Source of the DNA: a virus
IMG/VR virus record: IMGVR_UViG_3300049595_002773
Span: 1-24,990 of that record
Strand: one strand, 5' to 3'
Length of the DNA: 24,990 bases
Shown here: piece after piece, positions 12,757-18,932 of the stretch
Layout: each line of letters starts with the position of its first letter
Position numbering within the stretch: the first letter of the stretch is position 1
The notes under the pieces: generated by a model
Told to the model about the DNA's origin: nothing
The model's input: only the letters and a program-made list of their open reading frames with translations
The model's database searches: none
Translations under genes and position numbers: made by a program

Positions 12757-12808
12757 CTCGTGGGCATCGATGAAGCGGAAGAAACCACCACAGGAGAGGA
12801 ACGACGAT

Positions 12809-13303
12809 ATGGATATCGAATGGACGATGGACGAGGCGGCGGACGTACACGGCACGAGGCCCGAGGAGTACGACATCGTCCCGGTCGGCACCCACCGGCT
12901 GAAGATCGTGTCGGCCGAGGTAGGCCCGAACCAGTGGAAGACGGATGAGAAGGTCAACCCTGACGGCATCTGTCTGAAGCTGCGGCTTGAGCTCGACGCC
13001 ACCCACAAGCACATCTACCACGACCTGCCAAAGCACCGCCCGTACATGGGCGCCGAGTTGGCCAAGGCAATCGGCCTGGAAGCCGACGGCAACACGCTGC
13101 GAGTGTCGCCCGAGGCTGTGCTCGGCCAGGTGGTGATCGCCATGGTCGAGCACTACACGAGCAAGGCCGGCAAGGTCAGCGCCGTGATCAAGAAGTACCT
13201 GCCTGGGCCTGTGCCGCCGCAGGCCGCCAAGCCGGCACGAACTCCGGCAGCAAAGGTGCGGGCGGCGTCGCCTGCGATCGGCTCCGACGACATCCCGTTC
13301 TAG
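12809..13303 (+). CDS. SSB-like DUF669-type single-stranded DNA-binding protein
   Basis: I chose the ATG at 12809 (MDIEWTMDEAAD...), supported by AGGAGAGGA; longer frames begin inside the preceding gene. The 164-residue product has an OB-like beta core (VGTHRLKIVSAEVG ... ICLKLRLELD ... VVIAMVEHYTSKAGKVSAVIKKYLPG), a Pro/Ala-rich linker and an acidic C-terminal tip DDIPF. That tip is the hallmark of bacterial and phage SSB, used to recruit partner proteins. With the ATPase just upstream this forms a recombination pair. The DUF669/SSB assignment rests on layout and tail, not on a search. Confidence 0.75.
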   Translation: MDIEWTMDEAADVHGTRPEEYDIVPVGTHRLKIVSAEVGPNQWKTDEKVNPDGICLKLRLELDATHKHIYHDLPKHRPYMGAELAKAIGLEADGNTLRVSPEAVLGQVVIAMVEHYTSKAGKVSAVIKKYLPGPVPPQAAKPARTPAAKVRAASPAIGSDDIPF

Positions 13304-14408: not shown

Positions 14409-15046
14409 ACATTGAAGACATGAAGACCCCCCAGCACATGGAGTTCAAGGCCTACGCAGCGTTTTCGTCGCGACTCATGGTCGGATTCAATCTGCAGGGG
14501 CGATACCTCCAGATGACTGTGAACAACCGCCCGACATCAGAGCGTGACGCCGCAAAGTTCAAGATCGACGCGAGGATCACACTCGACGGAGAAGAGATTG
14601 GCGTTCTCGACCTGGAGAGGAAAACACAATGGCAGGGCGGCGCGTGGCCGTATCGAAAGATAAACGTGCCGTACAGGCCGTTCGCCGTCTTCGAGAACAA
14701 CGAAAACGGTCGCGGGCGATTCAGTTCTAAGGTCCGCGAACTGCACAAGGCCTACGCAGCCGGAAGGCCTGGATTTTGGGTCGGCTATTCGTCGCCAATC
14801 GCGGACGCGAGCGGCCAGACCACGTTTGTCTCGCGGCAAGCCTGCCTTGTTGTCCCCGCTTCACACATCTTCTCCGACAGATTTAATCCTCGCGCTGAAA
14901 CGCAGCCAAACAGATTCGGCCCTCCGATCAGTGTCATCTCGTTGGACAACGACGCCGGGATCATTTGCTTTTCGGAGGATGAATTTACTGAGGTGATTGT
15001 TGGGACCGTTACGGAATGGATGAACACGCAAGGAGCCGCGATATGA
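14405..15046 (+). CDS. putative PD-(D/E)XK-like nuclease-fold protein
   Basis: The 213-residue product starts at the ATG at 14405, with GGAGG five to six bases upstream. Around residues 50-75 a strand-turn-strand reads KIDARITLDGEEIGVLDLERKTQW. Its D...D-x-E-R-K pattern is what the PD-(D/E)XK nuclease core looks like (Asp, then Glu-x-Lys on a beta hairpin). The rest is beta-rich with a conserved-looking NVPYRPFAVFEN block. No signature outside that core is seen, so nuclease activity is a hypothesis. The stop is overlapped by the ATG of the ParB-methyltransferase gene, so the two are probably coupled. Confidence 0.45.
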   Translation: MNIEDMKTPQHMEFKAYAAFSSRLMVGFNLQGRYLQMTVNNRPTSERDAAKFKIDARITLDGEEIGVLDLERKTQWQGGAWPYRKINVPYRPFAVFENNENGRGRFSSKVRELHKAYAAGRPGFWVGYSSPIADASGQTTFVSRQACLVVPASHIFSDRFNPRAETQPNRFGPPISVISLDNDAGIICFSEDEFTEVIVGTVTEWMNTQGAAI

Positions 15047-16428
15047 AGATTGACAAGGAATTTGAGGCCCGCATACCAAAACTGAAGCCGGGCGAGCTGG
15101 CTGCCCTTGAGGCGAGTATCTCGGCCGAAGGATGCCGAGACCCTCTGGTCGTATGGTCTCGAGACGGCAAGGACGACGTGCTGGTTGACGGCCACAACAG
15201 GAAGGCCATCTGCGACCGGCTCGGCGTTCAATACAAAACGACGCGGATGTCGTTTGAAAACAGGCAGGCGGTGATTGATTGGATGCTGCGGCATCAGCTT
15301 GGCCGGCGGAACCTGTCGAAGGAGGCCGCTGCGGACCTGATCGGCCAGGTATACAACCAGCGGAAGATGCCACACGGAAGGCCAGAGAAAAGTCCTCAAA
15401 ATGAGGACTTTTCAGGGAAGACCTGCCAGGCCGTAGCCGACGAGCTCGGCGTGGGCCGCGCCACCGTTGAGCGTGCCGGGGCCTACGCGTCGGCGATCGA
15501 CCGCCTGACATCGCTTCTTGGCTTGATGCGAGACGAGCTGCGGGAAAGCGAGTTCATCCGCGACGGCGAGACAGTCAGGGGGCGGAAACTGCGGATGGCT
15601 GACGTGATTGATCTTGGCAAGCGGCCAGGCACCTATGAGGCAGGCAAGAAGGCAGGCAAGGCATACGGCCTGTCTGACGAGGACGCGGCGGCCGTCTGGA
15701 AGAAGCTGACCAATGAAGGCGATTCATGCACGTCAGTAAAGGCGGCCATTCGCGAACTGCGGAACGAAAAGGCCGCGCGAAAGGTGAAGACGGCAAAGGA
15801 CGAGCTGGTCGAGGTGCGGCTTGGTGATTTTGTGGAGATTGCTAAGGACATACCGGATGGCAGCGTAGACATCATTATCACCGATCCGCCGTACCCTCAC
15901 GAATTCATCGGCTGCTGGTCGCAGCTCTCTGAGGTGGCGGCACGAATTCTTAAGCCTCACGGATTGTGCATTGCCTACAGCGGCAAGCTGCACCTGGATC
16001 AGTGCATGGCGAGGATGGGGGAGCACCTGTCGTTCTACTGGCAGATCGTATTCATGCAGACCGTCATGCCGACAATTCACCCGAGAAGGGTGAACACGAA
16101 ATACAAGCCGATCCTTGTGTTTCAGAACGTGCCGGCCGGCCAAAAAGTGCAGGCTCACGAACGCTATTTCATCGACGTGATTGAGGGAGAGAAGGTCGAG
16201 AAAGACGCACACGAATGGCAGCAGAGTGCAGACGGTGTCGAGAAGCTGATCGACATTTTTACAAACGTAAACGATCTGATCTTTGAGCCGTTTTCTGGTG
16301 GGGGGACTACGGCGCTGGTGGCTCGTCAGATGAATCGCAGGTGCATCGCCTGCGAGATCGACAAGAAGGCCCACGAGGGGTCGATCGCTCGCGTCTTTGG
16401 AGCCACGGAGGCCACGGATGGCCGGTGA
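15043..16428 (+). CDS. ParB-domain/DNA methyltransferase fusion
   Basis: The 461-residue product starts at the ATG at 15043, with an AAGGAG site and an ATGA overlap. Residues 1-100 are ParB-like: PGELAALEASI, then VDGHNRKAICDRLGV (about 48-62). A middle helical part (about 110-250) contains an HTH (QAVADELGVGRATVERAG). The C-terminal part is an amino-methyltransferase of the beta order: catalytic DPPY in IIITDPPYPHEF (about 281), then the SAM site FEPFSGGGTTALVARQ (about 413). It should methylate adenine N6 or cytosine N4 in phage DNA. Such ParB-MTase fusions are common in phages and may protect DNA from host restriction. The preceding nuclease-like gene makes a defence/antidefence pair possible. 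Confidence 0.88.
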   Translation: MKIDKEFEARIPKLKPGELAALEASISAEGCRDPLVVWSRDGKDDVLVDGHNRKAICDRLGVQYKTTRMSFENRQAVIDWMLRHQLGRRNLSKEAAADLIGQVYNQRKMPHGRPEKSPQNEDFSGKTCQAVADELGVGRATVERAGAYASAIDRLTSLLGLMRDELRESEFIRDGETVRGRKLRMADVIDLGKRPGTYEAGKKAGKAYGLSDEDAAAVWKKLTNEGDSCTSVKAAIRELRNEKAARKVKTAKDELVEVRLGDFVEIAKDIPDGSVDIIITDPPYPHEFIGCWSQLSEVAARILKPHGLCIAYSGKLHLDQCMARMGEHLSFYWQIVFMQTVMPTIHPRRVNTKYKPILVFQNVPAGQKVQAHERYFIDVIEGEKVEKDAHEWQQSADGVEKLIDIFTNVNDLIFEPFSGGGTTALVARQMNRRCIACEIDKKAHEGSIARVFGATEATDGR

Positions 16429-17266
16429 GTGGGTTCCCTACGACGTTTGCCTGCCCCAGAAGCCCGAGGTGCTCGAGATCGTCGACTCGACCGGTTTGCC
16501 GGTCGACCAGGTCGTCGGGCGGCTCCTCATGCTCTGGGGCTGGGCCTCGCTGAACAGTGCAGACGGCACCGCCCGGATGTCAGTCCGGCTCCTGGGCCGG
16601 ATCTGTGGCGGCGACGAGGCGTTCTGGTTGGCGGTCCAGGAAGTCGGCTGGTTGGTGATTGACGCGGAGAACGGAACTGTGGCGATCCCCGGATGGGAGC
16701 GTCGGTTCTCGCAGGCCGCAAAATCACGGGCTTTGCACGCCTCTCGGGCCTCTGGTGCGCGTGGGCGCACTACCGCGTGCGCTCAAGCGCACGCACCCGT
16801 GCGCTCCGGCGCACCAGATAGAAGAGATAGAAGAGATAGAAATTCTTCTTCTTCCCACGGGAGCGCTGCGCTTTCGCAGGAGGAACCGGCGGGCTGGGAG
16901 ACGCTACGGAAGGCTTGGGCTACCGGCACTGGCCGGCCGTGGAAGCTACCGGCGCCGCCGGACAAGGTGGCCGACCGGCTGGCCGAGGAGGGCTGGTTCG
17001 AGAAGGCCCTGGCGGCCATCGACGCCCTGCCGAGGTGCCGCTACTTCCGTGACCCGGTAACGCTTCCGCAGCTGCTGGCTCCAGGCTTCGTCGACAAGGT
17101 GTTGGGCGGCCAGTTCGACAACCCACGGGACCAGCGGCCGGCGGGCGGCTACCGCGGCCCGGACGACAAGCCACCGGCCGAGGGATTCAAGGGCAAAGAC
17201 GCCGACGACTTTGAGTACACGCGGCGGAAGATGGTCGACCAATTGCGCAAGGAGGTCACCACATGA
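16418..17266 (+). CDS. phage replication initiator/replisome organizer-like protein
   Basis: The start is the ATG at 16418 (MAGEWVPYD...), with GGAG upstream; it overlaps the methyltransferase end by 11 bases. The 282-residue product has an N-terminal winged-helix-like domain (residues 1-105: KPEVLEIVDSTGLPVDQVVGRLLMLWGWA) typical of phage replisome organizer N-domains. A low-complexity linker follows (about 110-150: Arg/Ala/Ser-rich, then PDRRDRRDRNSSSSHG), and then a C-terminal helical DnaD-like or helicase-loader-type domain. The linker DNA carries a 68-nt hairpin and tandem 9-mers, as in lambda O where the origin lies in the gene. The protein would bind the origin and bring in the host helicase. 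The assignment rests on fold style and position. Confidence 0.65.
   Translation: MAGEWVPYDVCLPQKPEVLEIVDSTGLPVDQVVGRLLMLWGWASLNSADGTARMSVRLLGRICGGDEAFWLAVQEVGWLVIDAENGTVAIPGWERRFSQAAKSRALHASRASGARGRTTACAQAHAPVRSGAPDRRDRRDRNSSSSHGSAALSQEEPAGWETLRKAWATGTGRPWKLPAPPDKVADRLAEEGWFEKALAAIDALPRCRYFRDPVTLPQLLAPGFVDKVLGGQFDNPRDQRPAGGYRGPDDKPPAEGFKGKDADDFEYTRRKMVDQLRKEVTT
16751..16842. repeat. 68-nt hairpin plus three 9-nt repeats: candidate replication origin
   Basis: TCTGGTGCGC (16751-16760) pairs with GCGCACCAGA (16809-16818). Inside it GGGCGCAC (16763-16770) pairs with GTGCGCTC (16799-16806, one wobble). At the tip GCGTGCGCT (16775-16783) pairs with AGCGCACGC (16786-16794). Directly after it AGATAGAAG occurs three times (16816-16842, last base changed), followed by AATTCTTCTTCTTC, the only clearly AT-rich patch nearby. 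It lies in the linker region of the initiator gene. The structure is seen directly; origin function is inferred. Confidence 0.7.
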
Positions 17267-17487
17267 CGATGCCATCCGAGCGCACTGCCGCGATCGTCTG
17301 GACGCGCGCGTTTCTTGTGCGGCTATCGAGCCCGTACGTGCCGGACGGTCTCAAGGGCATCCCTGCGGTCGTCCGGCAGGAGGCCCGGCGGCTGCTCAAG
17401 CACTACCCGCATACGTTCGACCTGGCCCAGGGCGACTCGTTGTGCCAGGAGACGGCCACGAAATTGTTGGACGAGGTGACACCATGA
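17263..17487 (+). CDS. BPSL0761-like phage protein
   Basis: The 74-residue product begins MTMPSERTAAIVWTRAFLVRL and continues VPDGLKGIPAVVRQEARRLLKHYP. This order (MTMP-x-ERT, a Trp/Arg helix, then EARRLLKHYP) fits the BPSL0761 family of small phage/prophage proteins of unknown function. It is helical. The ATG overlaps the previous stop (ATGA), and its own stop is overlapped by the next ATG. It lies directly between the replication initiator and a LexA-type regulator, so it is part of one early operon. Confidence 0.65.
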   Translation: MTMPSERTAAIVWTRAFLVRLSSPYVPDGLKGIPAVVRQEARRLLKHYPHTFDLAQGDSLCQETATKLLDEVTP

Positions 17488-17723
17488 CGCAGGAGCAGCA
17501 AATGACCACGGCAGAGAAAGCGCCGCTGACAGCGCGGCAACAACAGGTTTACGAGTTCATCGTGGCGAACATCGAGCTCTACTCGCCGACCGTGCGGGAG
17601 ATCGCCACAGCGTTGGCGATCAAATCGCCGCACGGCGTAACTGTGCACTTGGACGCCTTGGAGAAAAAAGGCTGGATCAGCCGCAAGCCTCACGCGGTGC
17701 GTGGGATCAAGGTGAACGCATGA
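17484..17723 (+). CDS. LexA-type winged-helix regulator lacking a peptidase domain
   Basis: The 79-residue product matches the LexA N-terminal DNA-binding domain: LTARQQQVYEFIVANIE, then SPTVREIATALAIKSPHGVTVHLDALEKKGWISR as the HTH and wing (positions 30-63), and RGIKVNA at the end. No Ala-Gly cleavage site or Ser-Lys peptidase follows, so it cannot self-cleave like LexA or CI. It could compete for SOS-type operators or act as a phage regulator released in another way. The start is taken at the ATG at 17484 in an ATGA overlap; an inner ATG at 17502 is possible. Confidence 0.75.
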   Translation: MTQEQQMTTAEKAPLTARQQQVYEFIVANIELYSPTVREIATALAIKSPHGVTVHLDALEKKGWISRKPHAVRGIKVNA

Positions 17724-17920
17724 CTGTCGAAAACGCAGTGTTTGTGGCTACTGGTGTTCTGGTCAACGGATTGACTTTTGCCCTCGGCATCGCCGTGGGT
17801 GCGTCCCTCAAGCGAAAGGATTCTTCACATGGGTACGACTACCAAAAATCGCAATGGCATCGTGTTGAGCGTCGCGGCGCTCAAGGCGGCATTTTCGATC
17901 GTGAAAAGCGCGGTGACTGA
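17720..17920 (+). CDS. small one-pass membrane protein, overlaps dnaN start
   Basis: A 66-residue frame starts at an ATGA overlap and overlaps the clamp gene by 92 bases in another frame. Residues about 6-29 form a membrane segment (AVFVATGVLVNGLTFALGIAVG, given by positions 6-27), followed by a basic KRKDSSHG part. The coupling argues for a real gene. The C-terminal 30 residues are read from the same bases as the clamp N-terminus and may be unconstrained. Confidence 0.45.
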   Translation: MTVENAVFVATGVLVNGLTFALGIAVGASLKRKDSSHGYDYQKSQWHRVERRGAQGGIFDREKRGD

Positions 17921-18932
17921 CCGCACGCCGCGGCCGATTCTCCGCAACGTGCTGATCTCGGGCGGCCAGGTGGTCGGCACCGACCTCGAGGTGCAGGTGA
18001 CGGCGGCCGTGCCGTTCGACGGCCCGGCGCTCTTGCTGCCGTTCGCACGGGTCTGGTCGATCCTGACCGAGTGCCGCGACGACGAGATCACGATCACGCC
18101 GCAGGACACCAGCTGCGTGCTGTCGACCAAGCGAGGCTCGTGGACGCTGCCGACGGAAGATCCGGCCGAGTTTCCGACCATGACGGCCGAGCACGCGGCC
18201 AACCGGATCAAGCTTCCGGCCGACCAGTTCGCCGGACTGGTGCATGCCGTGGTGGAAGCCTGCGACATGAAAAGCACCCGGTACGCACTGGGTGGCGTGA
18301 TGGTCGAGGTCAAGGGCGATAAGGTCTCTGTCGTGGCCACAGACGGCCGGCGGCTCACGATGGCAGAGGCCGAGCACGACCTGGCCGTCGATGACTCCGA
18401 GACGTTGATTCCGCAACGTGTAGCCAAGATGCTGGCCGAGATCGCCAAGGAGGCCGGCGGCGAGGAGCTCGTGGAGCTCGAGGCCAGTACGAACACGCTG
18501 GTCTGTACCATCGGGTCTACCGTGGTGACGGCCAGGCTTGTCGAGGGCCGGTTTCCGCGGTGGCGAGATGTGTTCCCGAAGAACTCGACCAAGGCGACGA
18601 CTGTGAGCCGTGGGCTGCTGGCTGATGCCACGCGGGCCGCTGCCATCACGACGAGCGAGTCGAGTAAGGGAGTGGATTTCTCGTTCTCTCAGCAGGGCCT
18701 GCACCTCCACGCTCAGAGCAGCGAGGCTGGCGAGTCCAGCGTGACGTGCGACATCGTAGAGTTCGGCAACGCTGCCACAGTGAAGCTCGACCCGAAGTTC
18801 CTGCTAGACTTCCTGGCTGGCTTGGCCAAGGACAGCGAGCCGGATGTGGAGATTCAGGCCGCGAAGCCGGGCGATGCCGTGCGGCTCAAGTGCGGCGACG
18901 TTCACGGCGTGATCATGCCGCTGGCAGAGTGA
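17829..18932 (+). CDS. dnaN: DNA polymerase III beta subunit (sliding clamp)
   Basis: The 367-residue product is a full-length bacterial-type beta clamp. I chose the ATG at 17829 (MGTTTKNRNGIV...) because AAAGGA lies about eight bases upstream. The three clamp domains are visible: domain 1 to about residue 115 (RPILRNVLISGG), domain 2 from about 128 (RYALGGVMVEVKGDKVSVVATDGRRL) and domain 3 to the end (MPLAE, the usual C-terminal MPL tip). Clamps encircle DNA and tether polymerase and repair factors. No phage DNA polymerase lies in this window, so the clamp may direct host Pol III to phage DNA. Divergence from host clamps cannot be judged here. Confidence 0.9.
   Translation: MGTTTKNRNGIVLSVAALKAAFSIVKSAVTDRTPRPILRNVLISGGQVVGTDLEVQVTAAVPFDGPALLLPFARVWSILTECRDDEITITPQDTSCVLSTKRGSWTLPTEDPAEFPTMTAEHAANRIKLPADQFAGLVHAVVEACDMKSTRYALGGVMVEVKGDKVSVVATDGRRLTMAEAEHDLAVDDSETLIPQRVAKMLAEIAKEAGGEELVELEASTNTLVCTIGSTVVTARLVEGRFPRWRDVFPKNSTKATTVSRGLLADATRAAAITTSESSKGVDFSFSQQGLHLHAQSSEAGESSVTCDIVEFGNAATVKLDPKFLLDFLAGLAKDSEPDVEIQAAKPGDAVRLKCGDVHGVIMPLAE

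What the first reader, a model, noticed from the sequence alone, without database searches (positions are those of the whole stretch)
16751..16860. Origin-like structure inside the replication initiator gene
A 68-nt near-perfect hairpin (16751-16818), three tandem AGATAGAAG units (16816-16842) and a short AT-rich patch lie together in the low-complexity linker of a replisome-organizer-like gene. Lambda O carries its origin within the gene in the same way. The hairpin could be a binding or melting site, and the AT-rich repeat a site of unwinding. The protein linker is poorly constrained, which leaves room for DNA function.
Basis: partly seen in the sequence, partly recalled or inferred. Interest (0 to 1): 0.75.

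Follow-up and report, generated by a model that had tools for sequence, protein, structure and literature searches.

The report
Phage replication origin inside initiator gene
A virus of bacteria seems to carry its DNA-copying start site inside the gene for the protein that recognises it, and among relatives the site changes together with the short piece of protein that probably reads it.

Summary
The structure is real but is better described as three tandem 16-bp dyads, GTGCGC-N4-GCGCAC (16755-16770, 16777-16792, 16799-16814), one every 22 bp; the 68-nt hairpin follows from repeating a palindrome. The copies are read in three different codon frames. A strand-asymmetric purine tract (16816-16842) follows, in the least stable 40-bp duplex of the window. 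The gene (16418-17266) encodes a phage 'replication initiation protein' (phrog_2509), related to Rac YdaU, not detectably to lambda O. Among 175 distinct relatives the same linker holds dyad arrays (clear in 128, weaker or unclear in 47) and a purine tract of 20 nt or more (165). The half-site changes between genes, mostly as a set: 13 provisional types. Best reading: an intragenic iteron origin (binding array plus unwinding element), working like lambda ori or RepA_N replicons. New here: the site type follows residues 105-111, a basic helix just after a winged-helix domain, better than it follows the winged helix; in a few close pairs a block of about 120 bp holding this helix and its sites has been exchanged between otherwise near-identical genes. 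Binding and replication are inferred, not measured; there is no GC-skew switch at the site.

The parts
16418..17266 (+). initiator gene, 282 aa, ATG start; overlaps the end of the upstream ParB-like/methyltransferase ORF (15016-16428)
   Evidence: translation; phrog_2509 'replication initiation protein' E 2e-21; hhalign of the N-domain profile to Rac YdaU prob 97.8%, E 7e-13
16418..16705 (+). codons 1-96: winged-helix domain; its helix 67-76 is acidic and alike across site types
   Evidence: AF2 model, block means of pLDDT 89-98 for residues 11-90; winged-helix matches; charge and conservation
16706..16753 (+). codons 97-112: basic helix proposed to read the dyads; residues 107 and 111 follow the half-site type
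   Evidence: helix 101-117 predicted at moderate confidence, block means of pLDDT 66-70
16755..16770 (.). iteron 1, GTGCGC-GTGG-GCGCAC
16777..16792 (.). iteron 2, GTGCGC-TCAA-GCGCAC
16799..16814 (.). iteron 3, GTGCGC-TCCG-GCGCAC
16816..16842 (+). purine tract (the AGATAGAAG units), proposed unwinding element
   Evidence: lies in the least stable 40-bp duplex of the window, 16814-16853; rare codons frozen in relatives
16843..16856 (+). pyrimidine tract TTCTTCTTCTTCCC, role unknown
   Evidence: codons TCT TCT TCT TCC conserved in the window's group; a pyrimidine tract follows the purine tract in 112 of 167 scorable relatives
16889..17263 (+). C-terminal part of the initiator; aligns poorly in L074-L076, whose N-domain is alike
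   Evidence: alignment A1

Best explanation
It is the phage's replication origin, an iteron type lying inside the initiator gene. Proposed working: the initiator, probably as a dimer, binds each dyad (inferred from two-fold symmetry); three dyads 22 bp apart, about two helical turns, put the proteins on one DNA face (inferred); the complex strains the adjacent weak, strand-asymmetric purine tract, which opens (inferred from lambda); the C-terminal part of the initiator then recruits the helicase or its loader (inferred). Specificity lies mainly in a basic helix (about residues 97-112) that follows the winged-helix domain, rather than in the winged helix's own recognition helix (comparative evidence). 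Because that helix is encoded directly upstream of the iterons, a recombination of about 120 bp can replace reader and sites together, so that a phage changes origin type while the rest of the gene stays the same (exchange-like patterns seen in sequence in a few pairs; the selective reason is inferred).
For: Array beyond chance and at DNA level: 0 of 2000 synonymous shuffles reach it; copies start in codon frames 1, 2 and 0, so it is no protein repeat. Architecture kept: of 175 distinct genes 128 have two or more dyads at up to 1 mismatch, neighbours 21-25 bp apart in 187 of 188 gaps, and 165 have a purine tract of 20 nt or more against 0 of 175 in the first 260 nt of the same genes. Copies of one array mostly share one half-site while genes differ: 13 provisional types. 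DNA constraint on the tract: in 66 aligned genes of the window's group Arg is AGA 66/66 at two positions (background 1%), Ser TCT 66/66 at two positions (4%), Asp GAT 58/58 (7%). Reader helix: of 233 close pairs (88% or more identical in residues 1-96) of different type, residue 107 differs in 98% and 111 in 94%, and none is identical at both; in 326 same-type pairs 21% and 0%. L183 and L201 have identical residues 1-96 but sites TGTCCG versus GTGACG. Exchange: in 4 of the 233 pairs both flanks are 90% or more identical in DNA while the array is 51-60%; in L305/L307 identity is unbroken up to codon 106, broken from codon 107 through the array, and unbroken again from the purine tract. Near-minimal pair: L293 (H107, CCGGCGC) and L295 (Q107, CCGACGC), all four half-sites changed alike. 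Fewest type changes on a winged-helix-codon tree of 160 genes: 30.
Against: No binding, melting or replication was measured. No GC-skew switch at the site. 47 of 175 genes gave fewer than two clear dyads by the strict method, among them the phage GTAACG and most TGTCCG types; some arrays mix half-sites (for example the CCGATG type). The types were set by me by eye before genes were assigned to them. The helix rule is not strict: L298 has GTGCGC sites with A107, L305 has CCGACG with D107, and four close D/E-type pairs share H107. Other columns also go with type: residue 62 differs in 53% of different-type and 11% of same-type close pairs; helix 56-63 is only 0.44 identical between type consensuses; column 24 explains 0.54 of class entropy against 0.74 for 111 and 0.63 for 107. 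Only 1-4 phylogenetically independent supported pairs per contrast, each too few for significance; the pairs overlap. Two-sided exchange is clear in only 4 of 233 pairs, 12 at 85% flanks; in the rest the downstream flank has also diverged (median 0.69). No helicase loader was identified next to the gene in the window.
Confidence: 0.8

Rival explanations
1. The array is an operator: the initiator (or another regulator) binds it to control expression, and replication starts elsewhere.
For: Tandem dyads are also typical operators and many initiators regulate themselves (general knowledge). Nothing here measures replication.
Against: It lies about 340 nt inside the coding region; it is joined to a frozen, weak purine tract, as in lambda ori.
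Confidence: 0.1
2. It acts as one long hairpin or cruciform, or as an RNA hairpin in the mRNA.
For: Strong fold, z -5.4 (DNA) and -6.1 (RNA).
Against: Spacers that would pair in the long stem match at only 32% of positions (49 genes) and the outer loops at 34% (31 genes) (no chance level computed); the copies change to the same half-site, which the self-paired centre of a hairpin does not need.
Confidence: 0.04
3. Site type and residues 105-111 vary together only because they are neighbours inherited together; the winged helix or another part reads the DNA.
For: They lie within about 60 bp; exchanged blocks carry both; few independent contrasts; helix 56-63 and residue 62 also vary with type.
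Against: Winged helices identical in residues 1-96 go with different sites (L183/L201), so these residues alone cannot set the type; helix 67-76 is acidic and shared between types; L293/L295 differ within 105-111 only at 107 and at one base of every half-site.
Confidence: 0.2
4. A partition (parS-like) or methylation-controlled site for the ParB-like/methyltransferase encoded just upstream.
For: The upstream ORF has ParB-like and N6_N4 methyltransferase matches.
Against: A match to that ORF was found in only 30 of 151 relatives with more than 1500 nt upstream, whereas the array stays with the initiator.
Confidence: 0.03
5. A low-complexity protein linker whose DNA repeats are a by-product of amino-acid repeats.
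For: The AGATAGAAG unit is 9 nt and reads DRR DRR DRN in frame.
Against: Dyads repeat out of frame; the purine tract starts in all three frames among relatives (40, 54 and 81 of 175) and encodes different peptides; codon choice is far from background.
Confidence: 0.02

Closest known systems
Phage lambda ori inside gene O (also lambdoid Stx phages)
   Same: Tandem near-palindromic initiator-binding iterons with starts 20-24 bp apart in the middle of the initiator gene, followed by an AT-rich region with purines mostly on one strand (record annotation; passages of PMC5043065, and of PMC7466680).
   Different: Initiators not detectably related (hhalign prob 0.76%; no Phage_rep_O match); GC-rich iterons; the tract here is 30% GC and is followed by a pyrimidine tract.
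RepA_N plasmid initiators (pSK41/pSK1 type)
   Same: Winged-helix N-domain binding Rep boxes that lie centrally in rep; the linker is encoded by the origin; pPR9 carries a natural replacement of N-domain plus origin (passages of PMC5703833). Fold rows 5kbj, 4pql and 4pt7 over residues 1-92.
   Different: No RepA_N match in Pfam at E up to 1; fold Z about 6.5, tied with CRP-like winged helices. In pPR9 the replaced block is about 500 bp and includes the whole N-domain; here it is about 120 bp and starts at or near the helix after the winged helix.
PLE satellites of Vibrio cholerae (RepA_N and ori)
   Same: RepA N-domain and iteron origin covary and swap as a module (passages of PMC8263062).
   Different: There the origin is described as noncoding and the module is the RepA_N domain; here the sites are inside the gene.
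Rac prophage YdaU and similar phage genes
   Same: Homologous N-domain; the same place holds GTAACGC half-sites, some as clear dyads, then a purine tract in Escherichia, Xanthomonas, Pseudomonas, Klebsiella and Enterobacter phages; followed by a DnaC-like gene in several.
   Different: My paper searches showed no description of iterons in this family. Rac has an origin called oriJ (PMC3945230 passage); whether it is this site I could not test.
Eukaryotic bZIP basic region (analogy only, recalled)
   Same: A basic helix with small and basic residues that would read half-sites of a palindrome.
   Different: No relationship was tested; half-sites here are separated by several bp.

Membership tests
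Iteron-type replication origin inside an initiator gene (kind) | tandem repeats of one site in or next to the initiator gene | tested here: met
   kept in relatives
Iteron-type replication origin inside an initiator gene (kind) | helically phased spacing | tested here: met
   22 bp here; 187 of 188 detected gaps are 21-25 bp
Iteron-type replication origin inside an initiator gene (kind) | adjacent easily melted element | tested here: met
   rank 1 least stable 40-bp duplex of the window at 16814-16853, by computed energies only
Iteron-type replication origin inside an initiator gene (kind) | initiator binds the repeats and replication starts there | not testable with these tools
   no binding or replication data
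Lambda O / Phage_rep_O (PF04492) | sequence membership in the family | tested here: not met
   no Pfam match at E up to 1, while lambda O matches at 5.7e-36; hhalign prob 0.76%
RepA_N plasmid initiators | sequence membership in the Pfam family | tested here: not met
   no Pfam match at E up to 1
RepA_N plasmid initiators | winged-helix N-domain fold of the RepA type | tested here: inconclusive
   5kbj_C Z 6.6, rmsd 2.8, 83 residues, tied with CRP-like rows
phrog_2509 / YdaU-type phage initiators | N-domain homology | tested here: met
   phrog_2509 E 2e-21; YdaU hhalign 97.8%; 32 phage records at 28-35% identity over 41-44% of the protein

The most novel reading that the evidence does not exclude
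A widespread, little-studied family of phage initiators carries its origin as a self-contained 'reader plus sites' cassette: a winged helix whose own recognition helix does not set the sequence read, a following basic helix that reads the half-site with residues 107 and 111 as main determinants, and the iterons encoded directly behind it. Short recombination tracts exchange the whole specificity in one step, giving many origin types, perhaps under pressure from co-infecting phages, satellites or origin-directed nucleases.
Probability: 0.5. Interest if true: 0.75.

Novelty: new variant of a known kind. Interest (0 to 1): 0.62.

Why it matters
It gives a natural set of about 13 site types with their matching initiators (175 genes), in which the specificity of a replication initiator has changed many times, including a pair that differs within the helix at one residue and at one base of each half-site. 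That makes the question of how initiators and origins change specificity without losing function directly testable, and suggests an answer: reader and sites sit next to each other and can move together. It also predicts origins in many uncultured phages, one of them linked to a Planctomycetota metagenome assembly, and in relatives of a well-known E. coli prophage.

Tried and rejected
GC skew as origin marker: no switch at the site. Whole-hairpin reading: disfavoured by the spacer test. Lambda O homology: not found. Pfam and NCBIfam gave no family for the initiator at E up to 1. PDB by sequence: four hits at E 0.034-0.71, none convincing. Foldseek: no hit at E up to 0.001 for either model. I first called the YdaU family DUF1376 from memory; Pfam gives YdaU no match, so my paper searches with that term were misdirected. 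A one-letter helix-to-base code was looked for and not established; exceptions L298 and L305 are told. Independent pairs on the tree were too few for a formal test.

Choices and dropped rows: 13 of 79 loci, cut before or within the N-domain or before the linker, were not printed. The search for related loci kept only the best 80 of 263, 105 and 109 relatives. 15 of 32 phage hits were fetched. Genes with identical first 480 nt were collapsed (344 matches to 171); 4 phage genes missed by my start pattern were added by hand, giving 175: the window, L098, 15 phage genes and 158 virus-contig genes. Site types were defined by me from the printed sequences; automatic assignment put L267 and L268 in doubtful types, I reassigned them by eye and recounted; the nonredundant set of 117 was made with the first labels.

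Not done: no host was established beyond L098, and the window was not searched exhaustively for a helicase loader.

Full report
WHAT IS THERE. The gene runs from ATG 16418 to 17266 (282 aa); its start overlaps the end of the ParB-like/methyltransferase ORF 15016-16428. Its best families are phrog_2509 (E 2e-21) and phrog_9474, both 'replication initiation protein', over residues 1-154 and 3-147 of the form without the first Met. In its linker lie three exact copies of GTGCGC-N4-GCGCAC, 22 bp apart, then AGATAGAAG AGATAGAAG AGATAGAAA, then TTCTTCTTCTTCCC. It follows from repeating a palindrome: the unpaired parts of the fold fall in dyad cores and spacers.

NOT CHANCE, NOT A PROTEIN REPEAT. Synonymous shuffling of the gene never gave three such dyads in 2000 tries. 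Since 22 is not a multiple of 3, the copies start in frames 1, 2 and 0, at residues 113, 120 and 128. No 300-nt tile away from the site has two or more tandem dyads by the same measure.

RELATIVES. Scans of virus contigs gave 79, 263, 105, 109 and 56 relatives, overlapping between scans, at most 80 kept from each. With one metagenome locus and 15 of 32 GenBank phage hits, collapsing identical genes left 175. By a strict search 128 of 175 have two or more dyads and 58 three or more; 187 of 188 gaps between neighbours are 21-25 bp, one is 42. The other 47 have weaker or unclear arrays, for instance GTAACGC in Escherichia, Xanthomonas and Pseudomonas phages and TGTCCG types. The half-site differs between genes and is mostly shared by the copies of one array: 13 provisional types (two genes reassigned later).

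UNWINDING ELEMENT. The 40-bp stretch 16814-16853 is the least stable of 24,950 windows of that length by nearest-neighbour energies; the same place is first at 30 and 50 bp. A run of 20 nt or more with at most 12% pyrimidine lies in the 260 nt from the helix codons in 165 of 175 genes and in none of their first 260 nt. It starts in all three frames (81, 54, 40) and encodes peptides as different as DRRDRRDR, EEEEEED and REEKRREEK. In 66 aligned genes of the window's group the codons are fixed on rare ones (Arg AGA, Asp GAT, Ser TCT). In lambda the AT-rich region also has almost all purines on one strand (PMC5043065, passages seen); in the lambda record the 41 nt after iteron 4 are 73% purine and 22% GC.

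WHO READS THE SITE. Residues 11-90 are predicted with high confidence and look like a winged helix; 101-117 is a helix with moderate confidence. The helix that would be the HTH recognition helix, 67-76, has mean net charge -1.5, and types F and G share GGDEAFWLAVERV as their commonest form; residues 101-111 have +2.9. Identity between type consensuses is 0.72 for 67-76 and 0.35 for 105-111, but also only 0.44 for helix 56-63 (55 pairs). Among 233 close pairs of different type, 107 differs in 98% and 111 in 94%, and none shares both; in 326 same-type pairs the figures are 21% and 0% (pairs overlap and are not independent). By type: B has H111 in 37 of 37, C N111 in 6 of 6, G Q111 in 19 of 19, F K111 in 19 of 19, A A111 in 26 of 26 and H107 in 25 of 26. 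In the window's gene, residues up to 112 are encoded before the first dyad, so this is not a coding side effect of the dyads here.

EXCHANGE. In all 233 close different-type pairs the median DNA identity is 0.87 for codons 1-96, 0.79 for 97-104, 0.48 for 105-111, 0.56 for the next 97 nt and 0.69 further on. Both flanks are 90% or more in 4 pairs (L151/L176, L183/L201, L183/L212, L305/L307) and 85% or more in 12. In L305/L307 the alignment is unbroken to codon 106, differs from codon 107 through the array, and is unbroken again from the purine tract on; in L183/L201, whose residues 1-96 are identical, the break starts near codon 97. L293/L295 differ within residues 105-111 only at H107Q, with CCGGCGC against CCGACGC in all four half-sites. 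The fewest type changes on a quick tree of winged-helix codons for 160 genes is 30.

COMPARISON. It works like lambda ori and like RepA_N replicons with the origin inside rep (PMC5703833 passages), but by sequence it is a member of neither. Exchange of N-domain plus origin is known in pPR9 and in PLEs (passages). Searches of open-licence papers showed no description of such iterons in the YdaU-type family; subscription papers are mostly not held, and two of those searches used a wrong family name.

LIMITS. No binding or replication data; skew gives no support; the helix rule has exceptions (L298, L305, four D/E pairs); phylogenetic independence is weak; some winged-helix columns also carry class information; two-sided exchange is clear in few pairs.

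Noticed in passing
16843-16856: A pyrimidine tract follows the purine tract in 112 of 167 scorable relatives; its C content follows the G content of the purine tract (r 0.68, clades not controlled), as if the two could pair. Unexplained.
   Followed up: partly
L074-L076 versus window 16889-17263: The C-terminal half of the initiator aligns poorly in these relatives while N-domain and purine tract remain: initiators look modular.
   Followed up: no
15016-16428: ParB-like plus N6_N4 methyltransferase ORF overlapping the initiator start; a match lies in 30 of 151 relatives with enough upstream sequence.
   Followed up: partly
17505-17723 and 17778-18932: A stand-alone LexA DNA-binding domain (72 aa) and a phage-encoded DNA polymerase III beta clamp close to the initiator.
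   Followed up: no
12803-13303: ORF ending in SDDIPF, resembling the acidic tail of single-stranded DNA-binding proteins (recalled), after a Sak4-like ATPase.
   Followed up: no
L092 1492-2496 and 3877-4749: In Vibrio phage 1.211.A two C5-cytosine methylase genes lie on either side of the initiator.
   Followed up: no
17339-17378: A second inverted repeat, 18-nt arms, 78% complementary, 4 nt apart, in the next small ORF.
   Followed up: no
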